DNA of 64,000 nt. It comes from Alcanivorax sp. 24 (GTDB lineage Bacteria; Pseudomonadota; Gammaproteobacteria; Pseudomonadales; Alcanivoracaceae). The stretch is from the NCBI RefSeq assembly GCF_004360225.1, contig NZ_SNUA01000001.1:124001-188000 (forward strand), given 5' to 3'. The notes beneath the pieces were generated by a model. It was not told the origin of the DNA. It did no database searches and worked only from the letters and a program-made list of their open reading frames with translations. Positions 5,710 through 59,330 of the stretch are shown here, in pieces (positions within the stretch are counted from its first letter, which is position 1; each line of letters opens with the position of its first letter). The position numbers were made by a program, and so were the translations under genes.

Positions 5710-5800
5710 AAAAAAGGTTCCTCGCGGTTTAGCGGGAAGGGTCGCTCTGGCGGGGGCTCCCGTATTACCCGGTTACCTCGAAGACCTCCCTTCAGAGGGG

Positions 5801-6493: not shown

Positions 6494-6664
6494 AGAGCGG
6501 CTTGGTAGCCCCTTCCGGTTACAGACCCGTGCCCATGATTGAAGCGCCGTGGCCCGCTAAACCGCGATGAACCTAAAAGAAGGCGTTTTAGTGCTTGCCA
6601 GGGCGTTGGGTCTGGTTTTGCATTATCGGCGTCCGGCCCGCCTTTAAACATCCGCGATGTCCCG

Positions 6665-18873: not shown

Positions 18874-18902
18874 AAAAGGGAGCCTTGGGCTCCCTTTTTT
18901 TA
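18874..18902 (+). terminator. Rho-independent terminator after the small membrane ORF
   Basis: AAAGGGAGCC-TTG-GGCTCCCTTT followed by a T run forms a perfect 10-bp stem. Confidence 0.85.
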
Positions 18903-19066
18903 TTTCACCATGACTCCAGCACCGTACTTCGCTGGACTACGCCTAAGCTCGATACAGCAGGTTTATCAATAACTTAGGCTAATTCATCATATGCCGGTGC
19001 TTTCCGAAACTTGACCCGGCTTCCATCCGCTTGGCTCCTAACAGGCTCCTGGAAACGGGTCTTTCC
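18903..19066. other. Probable left end (attL region) of the integrative element
   Basis: This gap between the chromosomal terminator and the integrase ribosome-binding site must contain the left junction. It includes GCCTAAG (18941-18947) and CTTAGGC (18973-18979) as an inverted repeat. The 11-mer GGTGCTTTCCG at 18996-19006 also occurs at 18644-18654. Neither can be proved to be the crossover site, because the right end is outside the window. The exact 8-mer TTTTTCAT reported for Tn4371 att sites was not found here. Confidence 0.4.
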
Positions 19067-19078
19067 AAGGAGTCAGCT

Positions 19079-38888: not shown

Positions 38889-39173
38889 ATGCGACCCGCT
38901 CCCTTGCGGCCTGCTGTTGCCGCTACTGATACGCCCGCGCAGCCCCAACGCTACCTGACCAACGACGAAGCCGCCGAATATCTGCGCCTGTCACCGCGCA
39001 CGCTGGAAAAACAGCGCGTGATTGGCGGTGGCCCCAAGTTTCGCAAGTTCGGCCGCCGCGTCATGTACGCCGTAGCCGATCTCGACGCCTGGGCCGATGC
39101 TCGCAGCTACGAGGCCACGTCCGATCCCGAATACGCCGAACGCCACGCGGGTGACTACCGTGATGGCCGCTGA
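38889..39173 (+). CDS. AlpA/excisionase-like helix-turn-helix protein
   Basis: 94 residues from ATG 38889, eight bases behind GGAGG. An earlier in-frame ATG exists but lies in front of that site. The HTH is RYLTNDEAAEYLRLSPRTLEKQRVIGGGPKFRKFGRRVMYAVADLDAWADARSY, the MerR-like fold of AlpA and Xis proteins. It may act as an excisionase or as a regulator of repA, which follows after 14 bases. Confidence 0.8.
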   Translation: MRPAPLRPAVAATDTPAQPQRYLTNDEAAEYLRLSPRTLEKQRVIGGGPKFRKFGRRVMYAVADLDAWADARSYEATSDPEYAERHAGDYRDGR

Positions 39174-42777: not shown

Positions 42778-44751
42778 ATGAGTGACCACCACGATGATGA
42801 TTTTCGTATCCGTCCCAATGCGCCAAAGCACCGGGGACAGGGCTTTGTTTCCAAAGTGCTCAAGCAGACAGGCAAAGCCAGTGGTGGCAAATCCTCGGCA
42901 CGCCGTCAGACATCGGCGGGTAGCGCTGGCCAGCGGCCCGGCTCACGTTTGGGGCGTGGCCATACCGCCGCACGCTTTACGGGCTCCTCACTGACGCCGT
43001 TCTCGCGCCGTGTCACTATCAAAACCCTGTTGGTCAATCAGCGCCGGGCCAGCCCGCAGTCGCTGGAGAAGCACCTGCGCTATATCGAGCGCGACGGCGC
43101 GGGGCGTAATGGTGAGCCAGGCCGAGCCTATGGGCCGCAGATCGACGAGGCCGATCTCGATGCTTTCAAGGAACGCTGTCAGGGCGACCGGCACCATTTC
43201 CGTTTCATCCTCTCGCCCGAGGATGGAGCCGAGCTAGGCGATCTACGCACTTACGCACGTCACCTGATGAGCCGGATGGAAGCTGATCTGGGCACGCAGC
43301 TGGATTGGGTGGCAGTGGATCACTGGAACACTGACAACCCACACACGCACCTGGTTGTGCGTGGGCGTGACGACACTGGCAAAGACCTCATCATCGCCAG
43401 CGACTACATCGCCCATGGCATCCGCCATCGCGCCGCCGAACTGGCGACGGAATGGCTGGGGCGGCGCACTGAACTAGAGATCCAACAGACCTTGCGGCGC
43501 GAGGTAGAACAGGAGCGGTGGACGAGCCTGGATCGCACGCTGCAGCGAGAGGCTGGCGATGACTACCGGGTGCAGATCGAACGCTTTATCGACCCGACGT
43601 TGCAACGTCAGAGACAACTGCTCATTGGCCGCTTGCAACACTTGCAGCGCCTGGGCTTGGCGGACGAGATACAGCCCGGTACCTGGGACATTCACGCCGA
43701 TGCTGAGAAGACATTGCGTGCCCTGGGTGAACGTGGCGATATCATCCGCACCCTGCAAAGGTCCATGAGCGGCCTTTCACGAGAACTGACTGTCTTTGAA
43801 CCGGGTGAGAGCGGGCGCAGTGTCATCGGGCGTGTGGCTGGTAAAGGGCTCGCCGATGAACTGCACGACCGGGGTTATTTGGTGATTGACGGCGTGGATG
43901 GCAAGGCCCATTACATTTCACTCAACGCCCGTGACGAGTTGACGAACTATCCCACCGGGGCCGTGGTGGAAGTGCGCGGTTCTGCTGAACTACGTGCGGC
44001 CGACCGCAACATCGCGGAACTGGCAAGCGATGGCCTTTACCGCACAGACCATCACCTGGTCATCGAACAAGGCCGAACCAAGGTTGGGCGCGACCCGCAA
44101 GAAATCGTCGCAGCCCATGTTCGTCGCCTGGAAGCGTTACGTCGTGTGGGCATTGTGGAACGCGTGGCCGAGGGGCTATGGAAGGTGCCGGGCGACCTGC
44201 CTGAGCGTGGGCGTCAGTACGATACTCAGCGCCTGGGCGGGGTGGCGGTGGAGCTGAAATCGCACCTGCCCATCGAACGTCAGGCGCGCGTGATCGGCGC
44301 TACTTGGCTTGACCAGCAACTAATCGGCGGTGGTCGAGGATTCAGTGACATAGGCTTTGGTGGAGAGGTGAAGGAAGCGTTGCAGGAACGAGCCGACTTC
44401 CTCGAAGAACAGGGGCTGGCCCATCGACGCGGGCAGCGCGTGATCTTGGCACGTAACCTACTGGCGACACTGCGCAATAGAGAACTGGCCCAAGCCGCCA
44501 AGGACATTGTCGCCGAAACTGGTCTGGAGCATCGCCCGGTGGCCGACGGACAGAGCGTGACGGGCATCTACCGGCATAGCGTGATGCTCGCTAGTGGGCG
44601 ATTCGCGATGCTGGATGACGGTGTGGGATTCAGTCTCGTACCCTGGAAGCCAGTGATCGAGCAGCGATTGGGGCAGCAGATCGCGGCGACAATGCGAGGT
44701 CGCGGAGTCTCTTGGGAAATTGGCAGACAACGCGGGCCATCCATTGGTTAG
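42778..44751 (+). CDS. Relaxase (DUF3363 / VirD2-like)
   Basis: 657 residues. A basic N terminus (about 1-70) is followed by TIKTLLVNQ, a HHFRFILSPEDG strand, LDWVAVDHWNTDNPHTHLVVRGRD with the three-histidine metal site (His182, His189, His191), and later the DUF3363 region of about 400 residues (RVAGKGLADELHDRGYLVIDGVDGKAHYI...). It nicks the element at oriT and pilots the strand into the recipient. It is the main mobilisation protein of Tn4371-like ICEs. Its 3' end overlaps the convergent MFS gene by four bases, which is the left edge of the cargo. Confidence 0.9.
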   Translation: MSDHHDDDFRIRPNAPKHRGQGFVSKVLKQTGKASGGKSSARRQTSAGSAGQRPGSRLGRGHTAARFTGSSLTPFSRRVTIKTLLVNQRRASPQSLEKHLRYIERDGAGRNGEPGRAYGPQIDEADLDAFKERCQGDRHHFRFILSPEDGAELGDLRTYARHLMSRMEADLGTQLDWVAVDHWNTDNPHTHLVVRGRDDTGKDLIIASDYIAHGIRHRAAELATEWLGRRTELEIQQTLRREVEQERWTSLDRTLQREAGDDYRVQIERFIDPTLQRQRQLLIGRLQHLQRLGLADEIQPGTWDIHADAEKTLRALGERGDIIRTLQRSMSGLSRELTVFEPGESGRSVIGRVAGKGLADELHDRGYLVIDGVDGKAHYISLNARDELTNYPTGAVVEVRGSAELRAADRNIAELASDGLYRTDHHLVIEQGRTKVGRDPQEIVAAHVRRLEALRRVGIVERVAEGLWKVPGDLPERGRQYDTQRLGGVAVELKSHLPIERQARVIGATWLDQQLIGGGRGFSDIGFGGEVKEALQERADFLEEQGLAHRRGQRVILARNLLATLRNRELAQAAKDIVAETGLEHRPVADGQSVTGIYRHSVMLASGRFAMLDDGVGFSLVPWKPVIEQRLGQQIAATMRGRGVSWEIGRQRGPSIG

Positions 44752-45944
44752 CCCGCTATTGCGGGCCTTATGCGCTGGTGTCTCTCCTGAAGCAATACGA
44801 TAGTGGTGGTCGCAACCATAAAGCCAACGGCTGCCCACAATACGCCACTGGCCAGTCCTTGATCCAGCAGAAAGCCGAATAGGAGCGGGCCGATGACGCC
44901 GCCCACGTTGAAGCCGGTGGAGACGATACCGAATGTTCTGCCTTCAGCGCCTGCCGGGGATGCGGCACGGACCAGCATGTCGCGCGAAGGTGCCACCATG
45001 CCGGTCATAAAACCTGCTGCCCCAAGGGCTATAGCTAGGACCACGGGCGGCATCGGCACCCTGATCACCAACACCACAATGAATGCCGCCAACGCGAAGG
45101 TAGCTGCCGCCACATAACCGTGCTTGTCGGTACGATCTGCCAGCACACCACCGGCCAACACACCGAAGGCGCTGGCGAACAGGAAAACTGTTAGTGCCAG
45201 GTTAGCCGCCGGTAGCGTCACATCAAATCCTTGGACTAGCGCCGATACTGAAAATTTCTCGATGGCACCGGTGCTCAAGCTGAGAAGGGTGAACAGCAGG
45301 GTCAGGACGGCCAGGGTCATCACCGGCGTGGTAATTGGGCGCGCCTTAGCCTTGCGCGGTTCGGCGATATCAGCATCAGGTTGCCCTTCTGGGAGTGGCG
45401 AACTGATGGCCATTACGCTCCACGCTATCAGTCCGGCCAGAGCCGCGACGGCAAAGGACCAGCGCGGCGCCACGAGCAGTGCAACACCGACCATGACCGG
45501 AGGTGCCAGAGCGCTGCCCAGGAACCCAGCGAAAGTATGGATCGAGAACGCCCGGCCCATTCTGTTCGCGGGTATGCCGCGCGACAGCAGCGAATAATCG
45601 GCCGGGTGATAGACTCCGTTTGCCAGCCCAGCCAGGATCATGGCGGCGAGCAGGCACGGGTAATTTGGGAACACGGCGACCAGTCCGAAGCTGGCCGCAC
45701 CCAGCAGGAGTGCGGCCATCAGCACCCATCTCGCACCCAGCCTGTCCACGACAAAGCCGAGAGGTGCCTGTACCAGTGCCGAAATGATGTTGAACAGACC
45801 GATGGCAATACCCAGCTCGACAAAGCCGACCTGCATGGCGCCAGGCAGCAGCGGCAAGAGCGCGGGTACCGCCATGATGTGCAGATGGCTGACCAAGTGG
45901 GCGATGGATACTTGGACCAATAACCCGTTGGGTGACGATTTCAT
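44748..45944 (-). CDS. MFS exporter (fosmidomycin-resistance-like)
   Basis: 398 residues, twelve hydrophobic segments. VSIAHLVSHLHIMAVPALLPLLPGAMQVGFVELGIAIGLFNIISALVQAPLGFVVDRLGARWVL, the NGVYHPADYSLLSRG segment and STGFNVGGVIGPLLFGFLLD resemble the Fsr-like group of MFS exporters. It should expel a small molecule; the substrate is unknown. It is transcribed away from the MocR gene in the same direction, 30 bases downstream of it, so the two are probably one unit at the left edge of the vitamin B6 cargo. Confidence 0.83.
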   Translation of the reverse strand: MKSSPNGLLVQVSIAHLVSHLHIMAVPALLPLLPGAMQVGFVELGIAIGLFNIISALVQAPLGFVVDRLGARWVLMAALLLGAASFGLVAVFPNYPCLLAAMILAGLANGVYHPADYSLLSRGIPANRMGRAFSIHTFAGFLGSALAPPVMVGVALLVAPRWSFAVAALAGLIAWSVMAISSPLPEGQPDADIAEPRKAKARPITTPVMTLAVLTLLFTLLSLSTGAIEKFSVSALVQGFDVTLPAANLALTVFLFASAFGVLAGGVLADRTDKHGYVAAATFALAAFIVVLVIRVPMPPVVLAIALGAAGFMTGMVAPSRDMLVRAASPAGAEGRTFGIVSTGFNVGGVIGPLLFGFLLDQGLASGVLWAAVGFMVATTTIVLLQERHQRIRPAIAG

Positions 45945-45974
45945 TCTTGTCCCTCGTTAGTCCCCTACTAGGGA

Positions 45975-47471
45975 TCAGCAACACAACGCACGCAGCACGC
46001 TCGTGAGTTTCTTGACAGCAGTTTCCAGTTCGTGGGGAGCATGGGCGGCAAACCCCATTAGGAAACCGGCTCTGTGTCTGCTCGACGCATGCAGGGCTGT
46101 TAGTCCCAATAGGTCGATTCCTGCCCGACGCGCAGATTCCACAGCTTCACGTTCGGGGATGTCACGGATGAACACGCAAGGCATCTGCATGCCGCCGGCC
46201 GGCACTCGCGGTTCCAGAAAGTCGGCCAGATATTTTTTTACCAGTTGCGCCAACACATCGCGCCGTTTGGCATAGATGGCACGCATGGTCCGAACATGTG
46301 CGCCGAAGTGGCCGTCTTCGATGAAGCGTGCCAGCGTGAGTTGTGGGATCGGTGCGCTGTGTCCGTCCAGCAGGGTGCGGGCCACGGTCATGGGCGCGAC
46401 CAGTGGTGGAGGCAACACCATGTAGCCGATGCGCAGGCCAGGAAACAATGATTTGGTGAAGGTGCCGATGTAGATCGTCCGCTCGTGTGGATCAAGCCCC
46501 TGCACGCAGGCGGTGGGTTTGCCGGCGTAGTGAAACTCGCTGTCGTAGTCGTCTTCGATGATCCAGCTCTGGTGTTGCCTGGCCCATTCGATTACTGCCA
46601 GCCGCCGGTCCAGCGCCAGCGTCGCCCCGGTGGGAAATTGGTGTGATGGCGTCAGGAATACCGCCTTGGCCGGTTCATCGGGCGCCTTCGTTGGCTCAAG
46701 CAAGTGGTCTACTTGCAGTCCGTCGACATCCAGTGGCACTGGCACACACTCTAACCCGGCGGCATCGAACGCCTTGCGTGCCCCGTGATACACCGGATCT
46801 TCGATAAAGATTCGGTCGCCAGCATCGAGCAGCACGGTGGCGCACAGCATCATGGCTTGCTGAGAGCTGGTCAGCACCAGTACACGCTCGGGTGTGGCGC
46901 GTGCCCCTCGTTCGAGATTGACGTAATTGGCGATGGCGCGCCGCAGTGGCTCCATGCCCTGTGGCGGGCTGTGCAGCAGCGCCTGAGTACCGTACTCCCT
47001 CAACACCTGTCGCTCCAACCGCTCCCAGGTCTGAAGTGGAAAGCTGCGCGTTTCCGGCACGCCGGGCGCGAAGGCGCGTGGTATCAGAAAGTCGCGCACG
47101 CCGCCGCTCTGGAACATGGCGCTACCACGCTGGCTGAGGCGTGGTGTCTCCTTTTGCGTTTTCGTGCGCCGTGCCTTGCCACGCCCTGGTAGACGCTGCG
47201 CCCGCTCCGATACGAAGCTGCCGCTGCCCACACGACGTTCGATGAAGCCTTCCGCATGCAACTGGCTGTAGGCCGACTCGATCGTATCGCGGGAAACCCC
47301 CAGCGACTTCGCCAGGGCGCGCGACGCGGGCAGTGGTCTACCCACATCGAGTGCACCATCAAGGATCAACTGACGAATGGCCCGCTGCACGCGCGCATGC
47401 AGCGGCAAAGCGCCATGCGCGGGGTCGCCGATCCAGGCTTTGACGGATTCAAGTTGGGCATGCTTGAACAA
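45975..47471 (-). CDS. MocR/PdxR-type transcriptional regulator
   Basis: 498 residues. The N-terminal GntR winged helix (LPLHARVQRAIRQLILDGALDVGRPLPASRALAKSLGVSRDTIESAYSQLHAEGFIERRVGSGSFV) is joined by a linker (about 90-125) to a fold-type I aminotransferase domain. Its PLP lysine is in GTFTKSLFPGLRIGY (Lys340), and DDYDSEFHY is conserved. MocR proteins such as PdxR use PLP as effector and control B6 synthesis, salvage and transport genes (known). It is divergent from a transporter gene that begins an operon of PLP genes, which fits a B6-sensing regulator. Confidence 0.88.
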   Translation of the reverse strand: MFKHAQLESVKAWIGDPAHGALPLHARVQRAIRQLILDGALDVGRPLPASRALAKSLGVSRDTIESAYSQLHAEGFIERRVGSGSFVSERAQRLPGRGKARRTKTQKETPRLSQRGSAMFQSGGVRDFLIPRAFAPGVPETRSFPLQTWERLERQVLREYGTQALLHSPPQGMEPLRRAIANYVNLERGARATPERVLVLTSSQQAMMLCATVLLDAGDRIFIEDPVYHGARKAFDAAGLECVPVPLDVDGLQVDHLLEPTKAPDEPAKAVFLTPSHQFPTGATLALDRRLAVIEWARQHQSWIIEDDYDSEFHYAGKPTACVQGLDPHERTIYIGTFTKSLFPGLRIGYMVLPPPLVAPMTVARTLLDGHSAPIPQLTLARFIEDGHFGAHVRTMRAIYAKRRDVLAQLVKKYLADFLEPRVPAGGMQMPCVFIRDIPEREAVESARRAGIDLLGLTALHASSRHRAGFLMGFAAHAPHELETAVKKLTSVLRALCC

Positions 47472-47504
47472 TTGGTCTGTACCTCTACGTAAAATTGGCA
47501 GGGA

Positions 47505-47559
47505 CTATCCATCCATTTTAAAGCTATAAATACATTTCACAACCCGTCTATCCATTTTT
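47505..47559 (+). promoter_or_regulatory. Direct-repeat operator between the MocR gene and BenE transporter
   Basis: CTATCCAT occurs at 47505-47512 and 47548-47555 in the same orientation, 43 bases apart (about four helical turns), each followed by an ATTTT tract. A TATAAA box (47525-47530) lies between them. MocR dimers typically bind direct repeats on one DNA face, so this is a good candidate PdxR-type site. Confidence 0.6.
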
Positions 47560-47578
47560 CAGGAGTCACCATCAGGCC

Positions 47579-48820
47579 ATGTCATCCGTCCCTTCACCTT
47601 CATCTATTCGCTGGAACGATCTAATTCATCCTGTCGTGGCTGGTCTGATCTCGGTCATCGTCAACTACGGTGGTACGTTCATCCTGGTGTTCCAGGCCGC
47701 CAAAGTCGCAGGTCTCAGCCCTGAGCTAACGGCCTCGTGGGTGTGGTCTATTTCCATTGGCGTGGGCGTAACAGGGATCATCCTGAGCTGGATTTCCCGA
47801 GAGCCGATCATCACTGCGTGGTCCACCCCAGCGGCAGCGTTTCTGGTCACGGCGCTGGCGACAACGCCTTATGCCGAAGCGGTGGGTGCCTACCTGATTT
47901 CGGCAGCAGCATTTGTGGTTCTTGGGCTGTCGGGTTGGTTCGAGCGTGTCATCCGCCTGATTCCCCCGGGCGTGGCAGCTGGGCTGCTGGCTGGCATCCT
48001 GCTCCAGTTCGGCATTGGGGCTTTTGATGGTATGAGCGTTGACCCGCTGCTGGCCGGACTGTTGATTGTCGCCTATGTGGTGCTCAAGCGATTCTCGGCC
48101 CGCTATGCCATCGTGGGCATCCTAGTCATGGGACTGGCCTTCCTGCTGCTTCTGGATCGTGTTGATCTATCGGGGGTGAGCCTGGAGCTTGCCGCTCCTG
48201 CCTTCACCATGCCCGCATTCTCGGTCAACGCTGTGTTGAGTGTGGCGTTGCCTCTGTTCCTGATTACCCTGACCGGTCAGTACATGCCCGGCATGCTGGT
48301 ACTGCGCAACGATGGCTTCAAAACCAGTGCCAACCCTATCGTGACGATTACCGGGCTCGGCTCCCTGCTGATGGCTCCGTTCGGTTCTCATGCCTTCAAC
48401 ATCGCTGCAATCACGGCTGCCATCTGCACCGGCCGCGAGGCACATGAAGACCCGTCAAGGCGCTGGGTCGCCGGTATTGCCGCAGGCGTGCTCTACATTC
48501 TGGTCGGTGTGTTCGGGGTAACGTTGGCCGCGGTCTTCATGGCATTCCCTGCAACGTTCATCACCACCCTGGCGGGCTTGGCACTGCTAGGCACCATCGG
48601 CGGCAGTCTCGCCGGCGCGATGGCCGATGCCAGGACACGAGAAGCCTCGCTGATCACCTTCTTGGCGGCTGCGGCCAACATCACCTTGCTGGGCATTGGC
48701 GGGGCGTTCTGGGGGCTTGTGATCGGGCTGGCGGCCTATGCGGTACTTAATGGTCGGCTGCCGCAGCGGGCACAGGAATCCGCCGTTGCGCCGACGTCAT
48801 TCAACAAGAGGGTGAACTGA
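47579..48820 (+). CDS. BenE-family transporter, first gene of the B6 operon
   Basis: 413 residues with about twelve hydrophobic helices. It matches the benzoate/H+ symporter (BenE/YdcO) family by segments such as SIRWNDLIHPVVAGLISVIVNYGGTFILVFQAA, REPIITAWSTPAAAFLVTALA and LTGQYMPGMLVLRNDGF. Its family name implies benzoate, but the gene is divergent from a MocR regulator and overlaps a PLP-binding-protein gene by one base (TGATG). I infer that it may import a B6 vitamer or an amino acid linked to PLP enzymes; the substrate is not visible in the sequence. Confidence 0.83.
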   Translation: MSSVPSPSSIRWNDLIHPVVAGLISVIVNYGGTFILVFQAAKVAGLSPELTASWVWSISIGVGVTGIILSWISREPIITAWSTPAAAFLVTALATTPYAEAVGAYLISAAAFVVLGLSGWFERVIRLIPPGVAAGLLAGILLQFGIGAFDGMSVDPLLAGLLIVAYVVLKRFSARYAIVGILVMGLAFLLLLDRVDLSGVSLELAAPAFTMPAFSVNAVLSVALPLFLITLTGQYMPGMLVLRNDGFKTSANPIVTITGLGSLLMAPFGSHAFNIAAITAAICTGREAHEDPSRRWVAGIAAGVLYILVGVFGVTLAAVFMAFPATFITTLAGLALLGTIGGSLAGAMADARTREASLITFLAAAANITLLGIGGAFWGLVIGLAAYAVLNGRLPQRAQESAVAPTSFNKRVN

Positions 48821-49635
48821 TGTCCATGCCGTCCGACACACAGACCCGTCACGACCAGCATGGCCGTTATCCCGAGGCCACCACGGTCAAGGATTTCCGG
48901 CACAACCTGGCCGCCGTGCGGACCCGCATCGCCACCGCCTGCCGCCGTGCCGGGCGCGACCCCGCAGAAGTACGGCTGCTGCCGGTTAGCAAGACTAAGC
49001 CCGAGGCCCGCCTGCGTCTGGCCCATGCGGCGGGCTGCCGGATACTGGGCGAGAACAAGCCTCAGGAAGCCTTCCGCAAATGGGAGGCAATGCAGGACCT
49101 GACCGATCTTCAGTGGTCGGTGATCGGCCACCTACAGACTAACAAGGCCAAGCTGGTGGCGCGTTTTGCCAGCGAGTTCCAGTCGCTGGACAGCCTGCGC
49201 GTGGCCGAGGTGCTGGAACGCCGCTTGCAACTGGAAGGCCGCGCGCTCGACGTCTTCGTGCAGGTCAACACCTCCGGCGAGGCCAGCAAGTACGGCCTGG
49301 CACCCGAGGATGTACCGGCTTTCCTTCAGGCGCTGCCGGCATTCACGGCGTTGCGGGTGCGCGGACTGATGACACTGGCGCTGTTCTCCAGCGAAGCCGA
49401 ACGGGTGCGTCAGTGTTTCGTGCTGCTGCGCAGTCTGCGCGACCGGTTACGGCAAAGCGCACCCGCCGGAGTCGGCCTGGATGAATTGTCGATGGGCATG
49501 TCCGGCGACTTCGAGATCGCCATCGAGGAAGGCGCCACCGTGGTGCGTGTTGGCCAGGCCATCTTCGGCGCCCGCCCTTTGTCAGACAGCCACTACTGGC
49601 CCGGCGAACCCAGCACAGAGAAATCACAACCATGA
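48820..49635 (+). CDS. YggS-family PLP-binding protein
   Basis: 271 residues, longer than the usual about 230 because of an about 20-residue polar N-terminal extension. After it come the family landmarks VRLLPVSKTKP (PLP lysine Lys58), GENKPQEAFRKW (a variant of the usual GENYVQE), WSVIGHLQTNKAK, VFVQVNTSGEASKYGL, LRGLMTLA-type and LSMGMSGDFEIAIEEGATVVRVGQAIFG. YggS/PLPHP proteins hold and hand over PLP and balance vitamin B6 and amino acid pools. It is in the middle of a PLP operon, overlapping both neighbours. Confidence 0.9.
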   Translation: MSMPSDTQTRHDQHGRYPEATTVKDFRHNLAAVRTRIATACRRAGRDPAEVRLLPVSKTKPEARLRLAHAAGCRILGENKPQEAFRKWEAMQDLTDLQWSVIGHLQTNKAKLVARFASEFQSLDSLRVAEVLERRLQLEGRALDVFVQVNTSGEASKYGLAPEDVPAFLQALPAFTALRVRGLMTLALFSSEAERVRQCFVLLRSLRDRLRQSAPAGVGLDELSMGMSGDFEIAIEEGATVVRVGQAIFGARPLSDSHYWPGEPSTEKSQP

Positions 49636-50354
49636 AAACTGCCATTGCCATCCGCCACCTGGACTTTGAAGACCTCGGCACATTGGAGCCGCTGCTTGTG
49701 ACACGTGGTTATGCCGTGCGCTATCTGGATGCCACCATTGACGATTTGCACACCGTGGATACGGCATCAGCCGATCTGCTAGTGGTGCTGGGCGGCCCGA
49801 TCGGCGCCTTCGATGACACCATCTATCCCTTCATCGGCGACGAACTGGCAGTGATTCTTCAGCGACTGGAAAGCCGACGTCCGATGCTGGGTATCTGCCT
49901 GGGCGCACAGGTGATCGCCCGTGCGCTCGGTGCCAGTGTAGCCAGCATGGGCGTCAAGGAAATCGGCTTCGCGCCATTGACGCTAACCGAGGAGGGTGAG
50001 GCGTCACCCCTGACGGCGCTGGGCAAGGTGCCGGTACTGCACTGGCATGGCGACCGCTTCGACATTCCCGCCGGCGCCACGCGGCTGGCGGGAACGGCCA
50101 TCTGCGCCAACCAGGCTTTCAGCATTGACAGCCATGTGCTGGCGCTGCAATGCCATCTGGAGGCGGACCCGCGCCGCATTGAACGCTGGCTAGTCGGTCA
50201 TGCCTGCGAACTGGCGACGGCCGGCGTCGACCCGCGCGCACTGCGCGCCGAAGCACGAGCCCTGCAATCCGATTTGCCGCTGGCGGCACGGATGGCGTTC
50301 GCTTCCTGGCTGGACGGGATCGAGACAGCCCCGCCAAGAGGGGCATCATCATGA
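49632..50354 (+). CDS. Class I glutamine amidotransferase
   Basis: 240 residues. The triad is visible: Cys89 in GICLGAQ, His175 and Glu177 in LQCHLEAD. The N-terminal Rossmann-like half contains [12 protein letters not shown]. It resembles stand-alone GMP-synthase-like glutaminase proteins (YfeJ-type), not PdxT of the PLP synthase. It would release ammonia from glutamine or act on a glutamine-like amide; the acceptor is unknown, and no PdxS is present. It sits in the PLP operon with 4-bp overlaps to the YggS and pyridoxal kinase genes. Confidence 0.85.
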
Positions 50355-51283
50355 CCGACATCCCCTCATTTGCGCTACCTCAACCACTTCCGCTGGATGT
50401 GGTTTCGGTGCAATCACAAGTGGTTTATGGCCGAGTAGGCAACAACGTCGCGGTGCCGACTCTGGAAGCTCTGGCGCTCTCGGTGGCCGCAGTTCCCACC
50501 GTGGTATTCAGCAACACGCCGCACTACCCGACGATGCACGGCGGCGCGCTGCCCATCGAATGGTTCGATGGCTATTTGCAGGACTTGTCGGCACGCGGGG
50601 CCCTGTGTGCCTTGCGTGCCGTTCTGGTCGGCTATCTGGGCAACCCACGACAGGCTGATGCCCTCGCGCGTTGGGCGCGGGCGCGGCTGACACAACGTGC
50701 CGACCTACGCATCGTGATCGACCCGGTAATGGGCGATTACGACCACGGCATCTATGTCGATCCCTGTCTGGTCGATGCCTACCGCCGAGACTTGTTGCCA
50801 TTGGCCGATGGATTGACGCCGAACGGCTTTGAACTGGCGCACCTGACCGGGCGGACGGTGAACGATATTGAAAGCGTGGTCATCGCTGCCCGCACCTTGC
50901 TGACCGGACGTACGCAATGGGTCGCCGTGACCAGTGCTGCACCCGATACCTGGGCAAGGGACGAGATGCAGGTGGTGCTCGTTACCCGCACGCAAGCCGA
51001 AGTCATCGTGCATCCACGCATCGAGGTGACCCCCAAGGGCACCGGCGACCTGTTCTGCGCCACCTTGATTGGGCATTGGCTCAATGGCGCTGATCTGTCG
51101 GAAGCCACCACGCAGGCGTGTCGTCATGTCGTTCGCGCACTGCGTCATACCCAACAGGCGCAATGCGCCGAACTGCTGTTGCCTATGGCGGACAGCCACA
51201 AGGACCGCAGAACAACGGCACGTGAGTCCGTCAGCAAATTCACTTACAGGATTTTCCCATGCAAACAGCCACTTCCCATCTGA
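50351..51283 (+). CDS. pdxY: Pyridoxal kinase (PdxY/PdxK-like)
   Basis: 310 residues. The ribokinase-fold vitamer kinase is recognisable by [16 protein letters not shown] at the N terminus, VIDPVMGDY (124-130), [16 protein letters not shown], and PKGTGDLF with the catalytic Asp233. It phosphorylates pyridoxal (and perhaps pyridoxine/pyridoxamine) to PLP. The C terminus runs about 25 bases into the next gene and includes a divergent tail. The choice between pdxY and pdxK is uncertain. Confidence 0.88.
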
Positions 51284-52487
51284 TGCGGGCTTATGCCCGC
51301 CAACCCGTTTCCTTCGTACGCGGCAGCGGTGCGCGCCTCTGGGATGAACAAGGCGTGGAGTACCTGGACGCCATCGCCGGTGTCGCGGTCACCAGCCTGG
51401 GCCACGCCCATCCGGAAATCGCCACGGTCATCGCCGAGCAGGCTGAGATGCTGCTGCACACTTCCAACGTCTTCCGCATCGACTGGCAGGAGCACCTGGG
51501 CGAGCGCCTGTGTGCACTGACAGGCATGCAAAGGGCCTTTTTCTGCAATTCAGGCGCAGAAGCCAACGAAGCTGCCCTCAAGCTGGCAAGACTGCACGGT
51601 CACCGCAAGCAGGTAGCCGGGCCAAAAATTGTTGTGATGGAGAATGGCTTTCATGGCCGCACCATCGCGACGCTTTCCGCCTCCGGCAACCCCACTAAGC
51701 AGCAAGGCTTCGAGCCGTTACTGCCCGGCATCTTGCGGGTGCCCTATAACGATATTGAGGCGGTTCGCCGCATAGCTACCCATGAGTCCGGTATCGTGGC
51801 CGTGCTCATCGAGCCGGTACAGGGTGAAGGCGGTATCCGGGTTGCCAGTACAGACTACCTACGCGAACTGCGTGACCTTTGCGACAAGCACGACTGGCTG
51901 CTGATGCTCGACGAGATTCAGGCCGGCATGGGCCGCACCGGCACCTGGTTCGGGCACCAGCACGCGGGTATCACGCCGGACGTGATTACGTTGGCGAAGG
52001 CACTGGGCAACGGCTTTCCCATCGGCGCCTGCCTGGCACGCGGCGCGGCGGCCGATCTGTTCTCGCCCGGCCAGCACGGCTCGACCTTCGGCGGCAATCC
52101 ACTGGCTTGTCGGGTAGCCTGTACCGTGCTCGAGATCATGGCCCGCGACAAGTTGCCGCAGCGCGCCGCCGCACTGGGCGCTCGCCTGCTTGCTGGCTTG
52201 CAGAAGGCACTAAGCGATCATCCGAACGTCACCTCCATCCGCGGCCAGGGACTAATGGCAGGGATTGAGCTGGACAGGAATTGCAAAGAGCTGGTCGGGC
52301 GGGCGCTGGAGGAGCAGAGGCTGCTCATCACCGTAACCCGCGACACTGTCATCCGGCTATTACCGCCGCTGGTTTGCGATGAGATGCAAATCGACGACAT
52401 CGTGGTGCGTGTCACTCGCTTGTTGTCGTCAAGCGTGATGATTGGTGCTGTCACGACTGAAGCGGCTGTGCAGAAGGGGTCGACAAC

Positions 52488-52491
<4 letters not shown>
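51259..52491 (+). CDS. Class III aminotransferase (acetylornithine-aminotransferase-like)
   Basis: 410 residues. It has the fold-type I PLP enzyme pattern of ArgD/Ast[15 protein letters not shown] (99-112), [55 protein letters not shown] and [13 protein letters not shown] with the PLP lysine Lys247, then [10 protein letters not shown]. It would exchange the amino group of N-acetylornithine, succinylornithine or a related donor with 2-oxoglutarate; the exact substrate is not certain. It overlaps pdxY by 25 bases and trpB by four. Confidence 0.87.
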
Positions 52492-53719
<1,228 letters not shown>

Positions 53720-53723
<4 letters not shown>

Positions 53724-54577
53724 GCCGACTTGAGACGACCTTCCAGCGTCTGCGACGGCAGGGGCGCAAGGCGCTGATCCCCTATGTCACCGCTGGCTAC
53801 CCCGGCGTCGACATCACCCCGGCGCTGATGCACGTACTGGCCGAAGCCGGCGCCGACATCATCGAACTCGGCGTGCCATTCTCCGACCCGTCTGCTGATG
53901 GTCCGACCATTCAGGCCGCCAGTGAACATGCACTGCGCCTAGGCATTGGCCTGCCGCAGGTATTCGATCAGGTGCGACGCTTTCGCGAGTCGGACACCAA
54001 AACACCGGTGGTGCTGATGGGCTATGCCAACCCGATCGAACGCTACGATCTACTGCGCCAGACGGGTTCCTTTGCTGAGGACGCAGCCCGTGCGGGTGTG
54101 GATGGCGTGCTGGTCGTAGATTACCCGCCCGAGGTGTCCGGGGAACTGGCGACGCAATTGCGCCGCCATGACATCGACCTGATTTTATTGTTGGCGCCGA
54201 CCTCCACCGAGCGGCGCATCCGACAAGTTACCGACCGCGCCAGCGGCTACGTCTATTGCGTTTCCATCAAAGGCGTCACCGGTACCAAGACGCTGGACAT
54301 GACTCAGGTGCGCGACACGCTGGCGCGCGTTCGCCGCCATGTGCGTATTCCCGTCGGCGTCGGGTTCGGTATCCGCGACGCCTGCACGGCCAGGGAGGTC
54401 GCCCAGGTGGCCGATGCCGTCGTGATCGGCTCCTGGCTCATCGAAAGCCTGGCCGACAAGCCGGCGGCCGAGGCGCTGGCGGTGGCCAGTGATTTGATCC
54501 GCGATGTGCGCCATCAACTGGACCTGGACACGCCCAAGCCGGATCCCGCCTTCAAGCCCGAATATCCCAAAACCTGA
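53720..54577 (+). CDS. trpA: Tryptophan synthase alpha subunit
   Basis: 285 residues, TIM barrel. It shows [32 protein letters not shown] (the catalytic glutamate and aspartate), [25 protein letters not shown], and [10 protein letters not shown] with VGFGIRD. It converts indole-3-glycerol phosphate to indole, which is passed to TrpB. All catalytic motifs are present, so an active alpha-beta complex is expected. The stop is 24 bases before glyA. Confidence 0.92.
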
Positions 54578-54601
54578 ATTCCAGAACAAAGGACCAACCC
54601 T

Positions 54602-55873
54602 ATGTATGACACCTCCCTGACCCTCACCGATTTCGACCCCGAACTGGCCGAAGCCGTTCAGCACGAAGAGCGCCGCCAGGAAGATCACGTCGAACTGATC
54701 GCTTCCGAGAATTACGCCAGCCCGCTGGTGATGGCCATCCAGAACTCGGTGTTCACCAACAAGTACGCCGAAGGCTATCCAGGCAAGCGCTACTACAGCG
54801 GATGCGAGCATGTGGACGTGGCCGAGCGCCTGGCCATCGAACGGGTCAAGGTGCTGTTCGACTGCGACTACGCCAACGTTCAGCCCCATGCTGGCGCTCA
54901 GGCCAACGCGGCGGTGTTCCTGGCACTGACCAACCCTGGCGATACCGTGATGGGCATGAATTTAGCTCAGGGTGGCCACCTGACCCACGGCAATCCGTCC
55001 AATTTCTCCGGTCGCCACTACAAAATTGTGCCCTACGGGCTTGATCCCGAGACGGGACTGATCGACTACGACGAAATGGAACGCATCGCGTTGGAAACCC
55101 GCCCCAGGATGCTCATCGGTGGCTTCTCGGCCTATTCACGCCACAAAGACTGGGCGCGCATGCGCGCCATCGCCGATAAAGCGGGCGCTATCTTCTGGGT
55201 GGACATGGCCCACGTCGCCGGTCTGGTGGCGGTGGGCGAATACCCGGACCCACTGCCACACGCTCATGTGGTGACCAGCACTACGCACAAAACCCTGCGC
55301 GGCCCGCGCGGTGGCATAATCCTGGCCAAAGGACAGAATGAGGACTTCTACAAGAAGCTCAATTCTGCAGTGTTTCCCGGCATCCAGGGCGGCCCGCTGA
55401 TGCATGTCATTGCTGCCAAGGCGGTGGCCTTCAAGGAAGCACTGCAGCCCGAATTCAAGGCCTACCAGCGACAAGTGGTGACCAACGCCCGCGCGATGGC
55501 TGCAGTGCTTCAACGGCGTGGCTACGAAATCGTCTCCGGCGGCACCGACAACCACCTGATGTTGATCGACCTGTCTTCCAAGCCATACACCGGCAAGGAT
55601 GCGGATGCGGCACTGGCCGGTGCCTATATCACCGCAAACAAGAACTCGGTGCCCAACGACCCGCGCTCACCTTTCGTCACCTCGGGGCTGCGTATCGGCA
55701 CACCAGCCGTGACCACGCGCGGCTTTGGCGTGACCGAGTGTGAACAGTTAGCGGGTTGGCTGTGTGACGTGCTGGATGCGCTGGAGACCGGGGGGCATGC
55801 GCTAACCACGGTTCGTGATGGGGTGCGGAAACAGGTGGTGGACCTGTGCCGCCGCCATCCCGTGTACCAATAG
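54602..55873 (+). CDS. glyA: Serine hydroxymethyltransferase
   Basis: 423 residues, typical GlyA length. Recognisable parts are [84 protein letters not shown] and [16 protein letters not shown] with the PLP lysine Lys230. It interconverts serine and glycine with tetrahydrofolate. AAAGGA precedes the start. It is the last gene of the PLP operon before the LysR gene, which follows 14 bases later. No terminator is seen. Confidence 0.95.
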
Positions 55874-55887
55874 CGGACGACTGGCAT

Positions 55888-56829
55888 ATGGAATTGCGGC
55901 ATCTGCGCTGCTTCTTGGCCGTGGCCGAAGAACTTCACTTCGCCCGCGCTGCCGAGCGGCTGCACATCGAGCAGTCGCCGCTGTCGCGCACCATCAAGGA
56001 ACTGGAAGAAGACTTGGGCGAGCAGTTGTTCGTCCGCACCAGCCGCAGTACGCGGCTGACGCGGGCCGGTAAATTGTTTTTGGAGCATGTGCCGCGCGTC
56101 TTCGCTGCGCTGGAACAGGCCCGCGACAGTGTGAATGCGGCGGCCAATGGTTTTCACGGCCAGTTGCGCATCGCGCTGTCCGATGGCATCACACCCTCAC
56201 GCCTGCCGTCCTTGCTGGCGCTTTGCCGGCAGGAGGAACCCGAGGTCGAAATCCGATTGTTTGAGGTGCCTCTGTCGCAGCAACTCAAGGGATTGCATGA
56301 CGACCTGTACGACGTGGGTTTCGCACAGTCGGACGAGGTGGGAGATGGTATCGCGGCCGAGCCGATCTGGAGCGACCCGCTAATGGTCGCTGTTCCAGCG
56401 CGGCATCCGCTGCTCAAGCACAAACGTATCCCGCTGGACGAAGTGCTGCGCTATCCACCGGTGCTATGCGATCCCAAGGTATGCGAAGGCCATGCGCGCC
56501 AGGTCGAGCGGGTGTTGCGGCGTGCGGAGCAAGAACCCTTGATCGCCGAGCGCGTGGCCTCCTGCGACCTGATGATGGCGCTGGTATCGGCAGGCTTTGC
56601 TCTCGGCCTGGCGGGCGCGCCGCACATCGCTTCCAGCCGCGAACCTGGTGTGGTCGCTCGGCCGTTGGCGGGCCGTTCGCCGATGCTGACGACTTATTTA
56701 CTGCATCGGGAAGCGGAGACGTCGGGAGTACTGGTCCGGTTCATTGAGCGGGTACAGGCTATCGAATCGCCTGAAGGCGGCAGGCTAGTGCCACCGCCCG
56801 AATCGGATCAGGAGGAAGTCGAACTATGA
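55888..56829 (+). CDS. LysR-family regulator of the conjugation region
   Basis: 313 residues from ATG 55888 (MELRHLRCFLAVAEELHFARAAERLHIEQSPLSRTIKELEEDLGEQLFVRTSRSTRLTRAG); an upstream start would add 14 non-family residues. The C-terminal effector domain is complete. In Tn4371-like elements a LysR gene directly upstream of eexN and traG is part of the core, so this marks the end of the cargo. It overlaps the next gene by four bases. Confidence 0.85.
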   Translation: MELRHLRCFLAVAEELHFARAAERLHIEQSPLSRTIKELEEDLGEQLFVRTSRSTRLTRAGKLFLEHVPRVFAALEQARDSVNAAANGFHGQLRIALSDGITPSRLPSLLALCRQEEPEVEIRLFEVPLSQQLKGLHDDLYDVGFAQSDEVGDGIAAEPIWSDPLMVAVPARHPLLKHKRIPLDEVLRYPPVLCDPKVCEGHARQVERVLRRAEQEPLIAERVASCDLMMALVSAGFALGLAGAPHIASSREPGVVARPLAGRSPMLTTYLLHREAETSGVLVRFIERVQAIESPEGGRLVPPPESDQEEVEL

Positions 56830-57089
56830 AGCAGATCGTCCCATTATTACTTGTCGCGACATTGGCCGGATGCGGTCAACCGGAATCGCCTCGACAGGCC
56901 GAGGTGTTGACTGTGGAAGAACTGGCTGCTGATCCCAAGCGGCTGAAGGAGTTGCGACAGCAGTGCAAAACGGAACGCGCTCAGCTGGGCGATGTGCTGT
57001 GCAACCGAGTCGCCGAGGCTACGAACCAGCGCTTCTTTGGCGACGGGAGTACGCCTTACACCCCGCCGGAGGAATCGCCCAGATTCTGA
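56826..57089 (+). CDS. EexN-type small lipoprotein (entry exclusion)
   Basis: 87 residues. MKQIVPLLLVATLAGCGQP is a lipoprotein signal with the lipobox LAGC (Cys16 acylated). The mature part is short and charged, with two further cysteines (CKTER and LCNRV), as in the EexN/TrbK-like entry-exclusion lipoproteins. It probably stops redundant transfer into cells that already hold the element. Its placement just before traG agrees. Confidence 0.7.
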   Translation: MKQIVPLLLVATLAGCGQPESPRQAEVLTVEELAADPKRLKELRQQCKTERAQLGDVLCNRVAEATNQRFFGDGSTPYTPPEESPRF

Positions 57090-57320: not shown

Positions 57321-59330
57321 ATGCAAGCTCAGGGCGTGCTGTTTGGGCAGATCGCTGCCGTTTTCGGCATCGTGATCGCCGGTGTGTGGGGAGCCACACA
57401 ATGGACTGCCGCCGCTCTGGGCTATCAGCTACGCCTCGGTTCGCCTTGGTTTGATCTCTTCGGCACACCGGTTTATCCCCCCTGGAAATTGTTCGAATGG
57501 TGGTTCTTCTTTGGCGCTTACGCGCCGGAAGTTTTTGACACCGGCGGCGCGATTGCCGGTGGCAGTGGCCTGATGGCCGTTGTCGTTGCTATCACCATGT
57601 CGGTATGGCGTTCTCGGCAATCCAAACGGGTCACCACCTATGGGTCAGCACGCTGGGCCAGCGCCACCGACATCCGTAAGGCCAAACTGTCCGAGCCGGT
57701 GGGTGTTTTTCTCGGGCTGCACAACGACCAATACCTGCGCCATGAAGGCCCAGAACATGTACTGGCCTTCGCACCGACGCGCTCCGGAAAGGGTGTTGGT
57801 CTGGTCGTGCCAACGCTGCTGTCTTGGCCCGCCTCTGTGGTTATCCACGACATCAAAGGTGAGAACTGGCAGCTCACCGCCGGCTGGCGTTCGAGCTTCT
57901 CACACTGCCTACTGTTCAATCCCACCGATGCGAACTCGGCCGGCTACAACCCGTTGCTGGAAGTACGGCGTGGCGCGCATGAAGTGCGCGACGTGCAAAA
58001 CATCGCCGACATTCTGGTCGATCCCGAAGGTGCGCTGGAGCGGCGCAATCACTGGGAGAAGACCAGCCACGCGCTGCTGGTGGGCGCCATCTTGCATGTG
58101 CTCTACGCTAGCGAGGACAAGACGCTGCGTGGCGTCGCCAACTTCCTCTCTGATCCGGCGTGCCCGTTCGAGCTGACCCTGCACCGGATGATGACCACGA
58201 AGCATCTGGGCGATGTGCCACACCCCGTAGTGGCTTCCGCCGCGCGCGAAGTGCTCAACAAAGCCGACAACGAACGTTCAGGCGTGCTCTCCACGGCAAT
58301 GTCGTTCCTGGGACTGTACCGCGACCCGACGGTAGCGGAGGTCACGTCGCGCTGCGACTGGCGCATCGCCGACCTGATTGCAGCCGAACATCCGGTATCG
58401 CTGTATCTGGTGGTGCCGCCCTCGGATATCAGCCGCACCAAGCCGCTGATCCGGTTGATCCTTAACCAGATCGGGCGACGGCTCACCGAATCACTCGACG
58501 GCTCCGACGGCATCGAACGCCGCCACAAGCTGTTGCTGATGCTTGATGAATTTCCGGCATTGGGCCGGCTCGACTTCTTCGAAACCGCATTGGCCTTCAT
58601 GGCCGGCTACGGCATTCGCAGCTTCCTGATTGCGCAATCTCTCAACCAGATCGACAAAGCGTACGGCCAGAACCACTCGATTCTGGACAACTGCCATGTG
58701 CGGGTGACCTTCGCCACCAACGACGAACGCACTGCCAAGCGCATTTCCGAGACGCTGGGCACGGCCACCGAACTGCGCGCCCAGCGCAACTATGCTGGCC
58801 ACCGGCTCGCGCCGTGGCTGGGCCACCTGATGGTGTCGCGCCAGGAGACGGCTCGACCGTTGCTTACGCCCGGAGAGGTGATGCAGCTTCCGCCTGACGA
58901 GGCCGTGGTGATGGTCTCCAGCGTGGCACCAATCAAAGCCAGGAAGCTGCGCTATTACGCGGATGCCAATTTCAAACAACGCGTATCGCCGCCGCCTGCG
59001 CTTGCCGATTCTTCCCGGGTGAAGCGCTACGCCGATGCGCCGCCTCTGCGGCCTGATGACTGGAGCGAGCTGGTGACTCCAGCCATGTCCGCTGCATCGG
59101 TTGAGGCATCCACTGATGGTTTGGGCAGCGTGGACGACGGCGGCCCACGTCGTCAGCCCGAGCTGTCCGAAAGTGTCGCCTACGACCCGGAGTCGGAACA
59201 GGAAGTCAGCGATCTGGGGCTACTCGATGACGATGACCCGGCGCCGACGCTTCCCAGCCAGTTTGACCCGGCCATGCAGCGCGTGGCGCGGCTGGCGTCC
59301 CTCGACCCTGATGATGGAATCCAGCTATGA
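57321..59330 (+). CDS. traG: Type IV coupling protein TraG/VirD4
   Basis: 669 residues. Two N-terminal membrane helices (about 10-34 and 80-95) are followed by RVTTYGSARWA, Walker A APTRSGKGVG (151-160), SVVIHDIKGENW, NPL, and Walker B HKLLLMLDEFPALGRLD. The ATPase couples the relaxosome to the type IV secretion channel. GGAGG precedes the ATG. The 3' end overlaps the next gene by four bases and so starts the traG-trb operon. Confidence 0.94.
   Translation: MQAQGVLFGQIAAVFGIVIAGVWGATQWTAAALGYQLRLGSPWFDLFGTPVYPPWKLFEWWFFFGAYAPEVFDTGGAIAGGSGLMAVVVAITMSVWRSRQSKRVTTYGSARWASATDIRKAKLSEPVGVFLGLHNDQYLRHEGPEHVLAFAPTRSGKGVGLVVPTLLSWPASVVIHDIKGENWQLTAGWRSSFSHCLLFNPTDANSAGYNPLLEVRRGAHEVRDVQNIADILVDPEGALERRNHWEKTSHALLVGAILHVLYASEDKTLRGVANFLSDPACPFELTLHRMMTTKHLGDVPHPVVASAAREVLNKADNERSGVLSTAMSFLGLYRDPTVAEVTSRCDWRIADLIAAEHPVSLYLVVPPSDISRTKPLIRLILNQIGRRLTESLDGSDGIERRHKLLLMLDEFPALGRLDFFETALAFMAGYGIRSFLIAQSLNQIDKAYGQNHSILDNCHVRVTFATNDERTAKRISETLGTATELRAQRNYAGHRLAPWLGHLMVSRQETARPLLTPGEVMQLPPDEAVVMVSSVAPIKARKLRYYADANFKQRVSPPPALADSSRVKRYADAPPLRPDDWSELVTPAMSAASVEASTDGLGSVDDGGPRRQPELSESVAYDPESEQEVSDLGLLDDDDPAPTLPSQFDPAMQRVARLASLDPDDGIQL

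What the first reader, a model, noticed from the sequence alone, without database searches (positions are those of the whole stretch)
44748..55873. A vitamin B6 (PLP) gene island carried as ICE cargo between relaxase and traG
Ten adjacent genes encode an MFS exporter, a MocR/PdxR regulator, a BenE-type transporter, YggS, a class I glutaminase, a pyridoxal kinase, and four enzyme subunits (an ornithine-type aminotransferase, TrpB, TrpA, GlyA). Regulator, homeostasis protein, kinase and three enzymes all bind or make PLP; TrpA only completes TrpB. All key lysines are intact. From the transporter to trpA the genes overlap by 1-25 bases. Known: MocR proteins sense PLP, and YggS balances B6. Inference: the cargo could supply spare PLP enzymes with their own cofactor supply, for example as protection against a PLP-directed antimetabolite (the exporter would fit), or be a mobile serine/glycine/tryptophan module.
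Basis: partly seen in the sequence, partly recalled or inferred. Interest (0 to 1): 0.85.

Follow-up and report, generated by a model that had tools for sequence, protein, structure and literature searches.

The report
Mobile vitamin B6 regulon beside traR
A conjugative DNA element carries an operon for vitamin B6 uptake, activation and B6-using enzymes whose last gene ends 14 bases before the element's own transfer-activator gene, so shortage of a vitamin might both switch on the cargo and trigger its spread.

Summary
In detail: ten intact genes (44748-55873) form an extended PdxR-type B6 regulon, carried by a Tn4371-family ICE of about 53.8 kb (left end TTTTTTAT at 18896; insertion site empty in three congeners). 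The gene list is mostly known: Suvorova & Rodionov (2016) already report PdxR regulons with pdxK, BenE, the COG325 (YggS) family, ArgD, GlyA, a GuaA-family amidotransferase, GNATs and DapA. Beyond that: (i) the regulon is mobile, in the relaxase-traR slot of Tn4371-type ICEs and, in smaller form, in an ICEclc-like element that is 97-99% identical in five loci of different genera; (ii) pdxK (8 of 80 BenE loci) and trpB (5 of 80) are rare additions, found largely on mobile elements; (iii) the 13 held genomes of the host genus have no other pyridoxal kinase over cut-off, so the cargo adds B6 salvage; (iv) GlyA and TrpB are separate isozyme clades, not host copies; (v) a conserved three-box operator lies between pdxR and benE; (vi) glyA ends 14 nt before traR, whose KKS102 counterpart is co-transcribed with its cargo and activates transfer. 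Best reading: a B6-supply regulon whose low-PLP signal should also promote conjugation. Antimetabolite protection remains possible and untested.

The parts
18896..18903 (+). attL of the ICE (TTTTTTAT)
   Evidence: Tn4371-type 8-bp site; three congeners carry the left flank up to TTTTTTAT and then the right flank. The right end lies outside the window on the same contig, window-equivalent 72645 (exact TTTTTTAT) or 72696 (imperfect TTGTTTAT, which aligns best to the empty site)
19031..20278 (+). ICE integrase
   Evidence: Pfam Phage_integrase, Arm-DNA-bind_3
38776..38798 (+). TraR-type inverted repeat upstream of the xis-like gene, imperfect (3 mismatches in 14 fixed bases)
   Evidence: same position has 0 mismatches in pBYT1-1 and 1 in L025, but 5 in pKAZ5
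38889..39173 (+). xis-like HTH_17 gene
   Evidence: HTH_17; 96.8% identical to the pBYT1-1 copy; the name xis is an inference from position and domain
42778..44751 (+). relaxase with DUF3363
   Evidence: Pfam DUF3363 493 bits; Relaxase 20.7 bits, below its cut-off
44748..45944 (-). MFS transporter
   Evidence: relative on pKAZ5 annotated 'Fosmidomycin resistance protein'
45975..47471 (-). PdxR-type MocR regulator
   Evidence: NF052282 over cut-off; wHTH + aminotransferase domains
47472..47529 (+). conserved operator/promoter block: two direct TTGG boxes, one inverted CCATTTT box, TATAA
   Evidence: box arrangement as published for MocR regulators
47579..48820 (+). BenE-family transporter (predicted B6 importer)
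   Evidence: TIGR00843; called putative pyridoxine transporter in PMC5320631
48820..49635 (+). YggS-family PLP homeostasis protein
   Evidence: TIGR00044
49632..50354 (+). class-I glutamine amidotransferase
   Evidence: NF005458
50351..51283 (+). PdxK-type pyridoxine/pyridoxal/pyridoxamine kinase
   Evidence: NF006034; best solved match 2ddm, pyridoxine kinase
51259..52491 (+). ArgD-type class III aminotransferase
   Evidence: TIGR00707
52488..53723 (+). TrpB isozyme
   Evidence: TIGR00263; separate clade from 29 housekeeping TrpB
53720..54577 (+). TrpA
   Evidence: TIGR00262
54602..55873 (+). GlyA isozyme
   Evidence: NF000586; separate clade, 38 rows
55888..56829 (+). LysR regulator in the position of traR, starting 14 nt after glyA
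   Evidence: Pfam LysR, junction, family position
56826..57089 (+). small ORF in the position of the EexN lipoprotein of pBYT1-1
   Evidence: position; no Pfam match
57321..59330 (+). traG coupling protein
   Evidence: Pfam T4SS-DNA_transf 342 bits

Best explanation
A Tn4371-family ICE carries an extended PdxR regulon as cargo. PdxR binds the three-box operator between its own gene and benE; at low PLP, apo-PdxR activates the benE operon (inferred from published PdxR proteins). The operon imports B6 vitamers (BenE, predicted), phosphorylates them (PdxK), buffers PLP (YggS) and makes dedicated PLP isozymes (ArgD-type, TrpB with TrpA, GlyA). Because glyA ends 14 nt before traR, with no terminator in the gap, the same transcript should include traR, the activator of excision and transfer, so low PLP should also raise ICE transfer. 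Shown here: gene content, element, left end and empty site, junction, operator, isozyme clades (GlyA, TrpB), no other B6 kinase over cut-off in the host genus. Inferred: BenE substrate, PdxR logic, co-transcription, transfer coupling.
For: Families over cut-off. ICE anatomy and empty site. Operator conserved among 42 distinct sites and found once in the window, in the commonest published MocR arrangement. Pyridoxal kinase over cut-off in 3 of 57 relatives including this genome; 12 of 12 other congeners have only 24-29-bit matches. GlyA and TrpB isozyme clades. Cargo under purifying selection. glyA-traR gap 14 nt here, 14 in pBYT1-1 and L023, 17 in L025, 15 in L019, 87 in pKAZ5. traR of ICEKKS102Tn4677 is co-transcribed with cargo and activates transfer. 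TraR-type site before the xis-like gene: 0 mismatches in pBYT1-1, 1 in L025.
Against: No expression or transfer data. Of nine loci with the extended set examined, three do not show the junction: L010 (cut off inside trpA, no glyA), L028 (other backbone and LysR) and L039 (no traR recognised in the flank held). L019's LysR is only 56% identical. In the window the TraR-type site has 3 mismatches (39 of 2000 random 200-nt stretches do as well), in pKAZ5 5. The half-site near traG is not above chance, and a weak terminator-like match lies just inside traR, 55895-55907 (4 found, 6.9 expected by chance). Own promoters for traR inside glyA are not excluded (the KKS102 traR has two). The host makes PLP de novo (PdxJ), so the benefit of salvage is conditional. 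BenE family members are named benzoate transporters.
Confidence: 0.6

Rival explanations
1. B6-supply regulon only: the cargo works as described for B6 homeostasis, but traR is expressed from its own promoter and transfer is not linked to B6.
For: The core regulon is common in loci without a recognised traR; the LysR slot next to the last cargo gene is a general feature of the element family, so adjacency may be mere geometry; KKS102 traR also has its own promoter pR.
Against: Only 14 nt separate glyA and traR, so an own promoter would have to lie inside glyA; in KKS102 traR is transcribed from the cargo promoter with a far larger gap (294 bp).
Confidence: 0.25
2. Antimetabolite protection: the PLP isozymes, kinase and exporter replace or bypass enzymes hit by a PLP-directed inhibitor (cycloserine-, hydrazine- or aminooxy-like), the operon being induced because PLP is trapped.
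For: The PLP enzymes of the cargo belong to unrelated pathways; pKAZ5 adds a phosphoserine-aminotransferase-like protein, a short HisC-like ORF and GNATs; the isozymes are diverged from host enzymes; the three plasmid carriers come from activated sludge, a wastewater tank/soil, and an uncultured bacterium.
Against: No resistance determinant identified; PdxR-benE loci are widespread (532 BenE relatives confirmed) as expected for ordinary homeostasis; no test of sensitivity available; the GlyA loop change is partly shared by housekeeping enzymes and decides nothing.
Confidence: 0.1
3. A catabolic or biosynthetic serine/glycine/tryptophan/amine module that merely happens to use PLP.
For: GlyA, TrpBA and an ArgD-type aminotransferase with an amidotransferase could form a pathway.
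Against: trpB is in only 5 of 80 loci and argD in 31; the constant part is regulator plus transporter (78 of 80); no substrate links the enzymes.
Confidence: 0.05

Closest known systems
PdxR regulons predicted by Suvorova & Rodionov 2016 (PMC5320631; section 11 and passages seen)
   Same: MocR/PdxR regulator with pdxK, BenE as putative pyridoxine transporter, COG325 (YggS family), ArgD, GlyA, GuaA-family amidotransferase; RimI/RimL acetyltransferases and DapA, seen on pBYT1-1/pKAZ5, are listed too
   Different: trpB is not mentioned in the text; mobility was not mentioned in the passages I saw; here it is ICE cargo adjoining traR
ICEKKS102Tn4677 bph operon and traR (Matsumoto 2024, PMC11448139; abstract, two sections and passages seen)
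   Same: Regulated cargo operon between relaxase and traR/traG, read towards traR
   Different: Cargo is biphenyl degradation under BphS; the traR gap is 294 bp there, 14 nt here; coupling was measured there, not here
PLP synthesis genes on plasmids (PMC9997740; passages seen)
   Same: B6 genes acquired horizontally
   Different: De novo pathway genes (e.g. pdxJ/pdxA, pdxS/pdxT) on plasmids; here regulator, transporter, salvage kinase and PLP enzymes on an ICE

Membership tests
Tn4371-family ICE | Integration at an 8-bp TTTTT(C/T)(A/G)T site with direct repeats | tested here: met
   TTTTTTAT at the left end; empty site with TTTTTTAT in three congeners. The right repeat is uncertain: exact copy at 72645 or imperfect one at 72696
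Tn4371-family ICE | Integrase module, maintenance genes, relaxase, accessory region, traG/trb transfer module in order | tested here: met
   collinear with pBYT1-1
Tn4371-family ICE | traR (LysR) between cargo and traG, in the direction of traG | tested here: met
   sequence not compared with KKS102 TraR itself, which was not at hand
TraR control of xis | Inverted repeat CGTTTTG-N9-CAAAACG upstream of xis | tested here: inconclusive
   0 mismatches in pBYT1-1, 1 in L025, 3 in window and L023, 5 in pKAZ5; L010 none but only 58 nt of upstream sequence
PdxR (MocR subfamily) | wHTH plus aminotransferase-like domain, curated PdxR model | tested here: met
   NF052282 416.9 vs 320; GntR and Aminotran_1_2 domains. 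NF052281 MocR scored higher (428.9) but under its own cut-off of 650
PdxR (MocR subfamily) | Divergent target gene with a multi-box TGG operator between | tested here: met
PdxR (MocR subfamily) | PLP binding and PLP as anti-activator | not testable with these tools
   Lys motif aligns to the lysine of a solved regulator; binding not testable
BenE as B6 transporter | Transport of pyridoxine/pyridoxal | not testable with these tools
   Family over cut-off; linked to a MocR/PdxR-type gene in 78 of 80 loci

The most novel reading that the evidence does not exclude
Vitamin-gated conjugation: a PLP-sensing regulator controls, through one transcript, both a B6 supply operon and the ICE transfer activator traR, so that cofactor shortage makes the element leave and brings B6 salvage to recipients that lack a B6 kinase.
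Probability: 0.4. Interest if true: 0.85.

Novelty: new variant of a known kind. Interest (0 to 1): 0.62.

Why it matters
Known cargo in this slot is mostly catabolism, metal resistance or efflux. A regulated cofactor-supply operon with its own isozymes, found on two kinds of ICE, suggests that B6 shortage or PLP damage is a recurrent selective pressure. The traR junction makes it directly testable whether a vitamin signal controls horizontal transfer. The locus also strengthens BenE as a candidate for a bacterial B6 importer, an open problem named in PMC9997740 (abstract and passages seen), and offers diverged GlyA and TrpB isozymes whose PLP affinity can be compared with host enzymes.

Tried and rejected
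Rejected: (1) a common chromosomal locus of the host genus: no BenE of this type in the 12 other held genomes. (2) Cargo copied from the host: GlyA 62% and TrpB 67% identical to the host copies, separate clades. (3) A signature change in the PLP site of GlyA: PHAGAQAN in 37 of 38 island rows (1 PHSGAQAN) against PHSGSQAN in 26 of 29 housekeeping rows (2 PHAGSQAN, 1 without the motif); one of the two changes occurs in housekeeping enzymes too, so nothing is claimed about affinity.

Weak or failed: half-site CAAAACG is no more frequent than chance in the window. A generic sigma-70 scan found no promoter for benE. Paper search for KR827394: none; for pKAZ5: one paper on a Citrobacter strain, listing only; for BYT-5: two, listing only. 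No match of the operon in E. coli genomes. No Rfam family in the window. The C. metallidurans kinase hit had no annotation and was not followed. The second BYT plasmid (NZ_CP097490) was seen in the hit table only.

Right end of the ICE: I first took the exact TTTTTTAT at 72645; alignment with the empty site shows that the flank matches best from an imperfect TTGTTTAT at 72696, about 50 nt further. The end is therefore known only to within about 60 nt (53.75-53.81 kb).

ArgD tree: with groups set by locus linkage it needed 3 changes, two sets of identical rows lying in both groups because island copies re-fetched from relatives were labelled housekeeping; rerun without L182/L184 and with groups set by identity of at least 65% gave one clade. 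That grouping partly builds in the result and the set still holds repeats (L093, L152), so ArgD counts as weaker than GlyA and TrpB. Rows left out of the GlyA and TrpB trees: copies of the window, L039 and L122/L152 (same genes as L181), rows with stops or under 85% coverage or under 45% identity; in the GlyA tree 4 second GlyA copies (51-55%) were kept as a third group. The TrpB tree carries a long-branch warning and the GlyA bootstrap had not settled. The operator matrix used 42 distinct sites (44 regions) of 56 regions with a PdxR of at least 60% identity; the other 12 did not fit the anchor, and 18 regions with more distant PdxR were left out.

Novelty searches in the held library (listings): (ICE, pyridoxal kinase, SHMT, tryptophan synthase, at least 3 of 4: 5 papers, none holding the ICE term), (0 papers; Tn4371 and pyridoxal: 1 paper, where the words are unconnected in the passages seen).
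Full report
WHAT IS THERE. Nine match a curated NCBI family over its cut-off and the MFS transporter passes Pfam's. The only relabelling is that the 'glutaminase' is a class-I glutamine amidotransferase. From benE to trpA the genes overlap by 1, 4, 4, 25, 4 and 4 nt; glyA follows after 24 nt. The regulator passes the PdxR model (416.9 bits, cut-off 320).

THE ELEMENT. The window lies in a 4.76 Mb genome in 99 contigs. An integrase (19031-20278), RadC, ParB- and ParA-like proteins, a relaxase with DUF3363, a LysR protein, traG and trb genes are present. TTTTTTAT stands at 18896. In three congeners (G006, G007, G008) the left flank runs up to TTTTTTAT and is followed directly by the right flank. 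The right end of the insert is either an exact TTTTTTAT at window-equivalent 72645 or an imperfect TTGTTTAT at 72696, which aligns best to the empty site; the ICE is 53.75-53.81 kb. TTTTTTAT is a listed repeat of the Tn4371 family, and the region between relaxase and traG is the family's known variable region (PMC2789088, passages).

SAME CARGO ELSEWHERE. Megablast against 72,556 plasmid records found 25 with some match; 2 hold at least 80% of the query (Pseudomonas sp. BYT-1 and BYT-5, 79.8% identity) and pKAZ5 matches over 40%. On pBYT1-1 the order is the same except for one GNAT gene, with DapA-family, lactate-permease-like and PEP-mutase-family genes beyond the MFS gene. pKAZ5 carries more: an aminotransferase annotated phosphoserine aminotransferase, GNATs, a second GntR/aminotransferase regulator, a PEP-mutase-type gene and a short ORF annotated histidinol-phosphate aminotransferase. 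In both plasmids that I opened, the cargo lies between the relaxase and the LysR gene; the BYT-5 record was not opened.

RELATED LOCI. Of these 80 loci, 78 have a MocR/PdxR-type gene, 45 YggS, 35 GlyA, 31 ArgD, 13 the amidotransferase, 8 PdxK, 7 a SerC-type gene, 6 TrpA and 5 TrpB (identity thresholds as in that script; contig ends cut some loci). The five with TrpB are L010, L019, L025, L028 and L039. L010 and L025 have a relaxase like the window's; L019 has other backbone stretches of the window; L028 shares with pKAZ5 four further cargo genes at 99-100% protein identity but has another LysR and backbone; L039 shows no element gene of the window in 17 kb of its contig. L013-L018 (Luteimonas, Solimonas, Cupriavidus, Extensimonas, a Gallionellaceae MAG, a Comamonadaceae MAG) share one element: against L013, four are 97.4-98.9% identical over 16.8-17.2 kb and the fifth 99.5% over its whole 6-kb contig. 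It has TraG_N, TraI_2 and an integrase and carries pdxR-benE-argD-glyA. I call it ICEclc-like from recall of that family. So at least two kinds of element have taken up this locus.

HOST. None of the 12 other held genomes of the genus has a BenE of this type. Pyridoxal kinases over the TIGR00687 cut-off occur in 3 of 57 relatives, this genome included (the others are G014 and G025, same family); the 12 other congeners have one weak match each, 24-29 bits, which I take for ThiD-like kinases. A search of the own genome with the island kinase found only itself. The host has PdxJ, its own GlyA (62%), TrpB (67%), ArgD-type enzymes (best 59%), two other YggS over cut-off and a second PdxR-type regulator over cut-off. 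The one clearly new step the cargo brings is B6 phosphorylation, and perhaps uptake.

ISOZYMES. Island GlyA (38 rows) is one clade with 100/100 support against 29 housekeeping rows and 4 other copies (bootstrap not fully settled). Island TrpB (8 rows) is one clade, 100/99, against 29 (long-branch warning). ArgD points the same way but its grouping is partly circular. The ten cargo genes show dN/dS of 0.04-0.33 in the comparisons made with seven loci (not every gene is present in each).

OPERATOR. The region between pdxR and benE holds a conserved 58-bp block: TTGG, 23 nt later a second TTGG, then an inverted CCATTTT box and TATAA. It occurs once in the window (score 79.7; nothing over 5 in one shuffled copy of the window). 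Where a gene is inserted between pdxR and benE (a permease-like ORF in pKAZ5, a SerC-type gene in L045 and L050) the block is present twice, one of the two weaker. Two direct boxes and one inverted box is the commonest arrangement in the published table for MocR regulators, and most of their motifs hold TGT or TGG (PMC5320631). Known apo-PdxR proteins activate the divergent target, and PLP counteracts this (same paper); those were Gram-positive cases.

THE JUNCTION WITH traR. glyA ends at 55873 and the LysR gene starts at 55888, a gap of 14 nt. The gap is 14 in pBYT1-1 and L023, 17 in L025, 15 in L019 (LysR only 56% identical) and 87 in pKAZ5; L010 is cut off inside trpA, L028 has another arrangement and L039 no traR, so 6 of the 9 loci examined show it. 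Similarity to the LysR genes of other plasmids begins at window 55888-55897, the start of the gene. In pTTS12 an unrelated MFS cargo gene also ends 14 nt before the LysR gene. [quoted passage not shown] The TraR-type repeat proposed there is found 113 nt before the xis-like gene with 0 mismatches in pBYT1-1, 1 in L025, 3 in the window and L023, 5 in pKAZ5; L010, with 58 nt of upstream sequence, has none. Random 200-nt stretches of the window reach 3 mismatches in 39 of 2000 draws, so in the window itself the site is suggestive, not proven. A CAAAAGG like the proposed oriT half-site lies at 42609, before the relaxase gene; it is one of four in the window.

INTERPRETATION. Most likely the island is a B6-supply regulon with dedicated PLP enzymes, expressed at low PLP, whose transcript continues into the ICE transfer activator. 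The supply part rests on family membership, published regulon predictions and the missing host kinase. The transfer coupling rests on anatomy and on one experimentally studied relative. Protection against a PLP-directed poison remains open: it would fit the bundle of PLP enzymes from unrelated pathways, but nothing here tests it, and the wide spread of the core argues for ordinary B6 homeostasis.

NOVELTY. The regulon content is known, except that trpB is not mentioned in that paper's text. In the held library I found no paper that describes it as ICE cargo or links B6 to conjugation; papers outside that library and supplementary tables were not searched. I rate it a new variant of a known kind.

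Noticed in passing
window 33116-36687 (-): The ICE also carries a GajA/GajB pair (Gabija anti-phage system): PADLOC GajA 1114.7 bits, GajB 909.2 bits; pKAZ5 has an exonuclease/helicase pair at the same place in its element.
   Followed up: partly
L013-L018: A near-identical element (97-99%) with TraG_N, TraI_2 and integrase genes carries pdxR-benE-argD-glyA in beta- and gammaproteobacteria: recent spread of a smaller B6 cargo.
   Followed up: partly
L036, L049, L050, about 5600-7000: Delftia and Pseudomonas loci hold a second, more distant GlyA (51%) with an amidotransferase and an ABM-domain protein (and an MFS gene in L050) on the other side of pdxR: a larger version of the regulon.
   Followed up: no
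L045, L046, L050, L051, L052, L055, L070: A SerC-type aminotransferase gene sits between pdxR and benE in 7 of 80 loci; in the two scanned it brings a second copy of the operator. SerC is also an enzyme of the de novo B6 pathway.
   Followed up: partly
L023 14883-14966: In Acidovorax facilis trpB is missing between argD and trpA although trpA remains.
   Followed up: no
L183 5456-8437: A 993-aa AAA protein right of trbI inside the ICE, weakly similar to defence ATPases.
   Followed up: no
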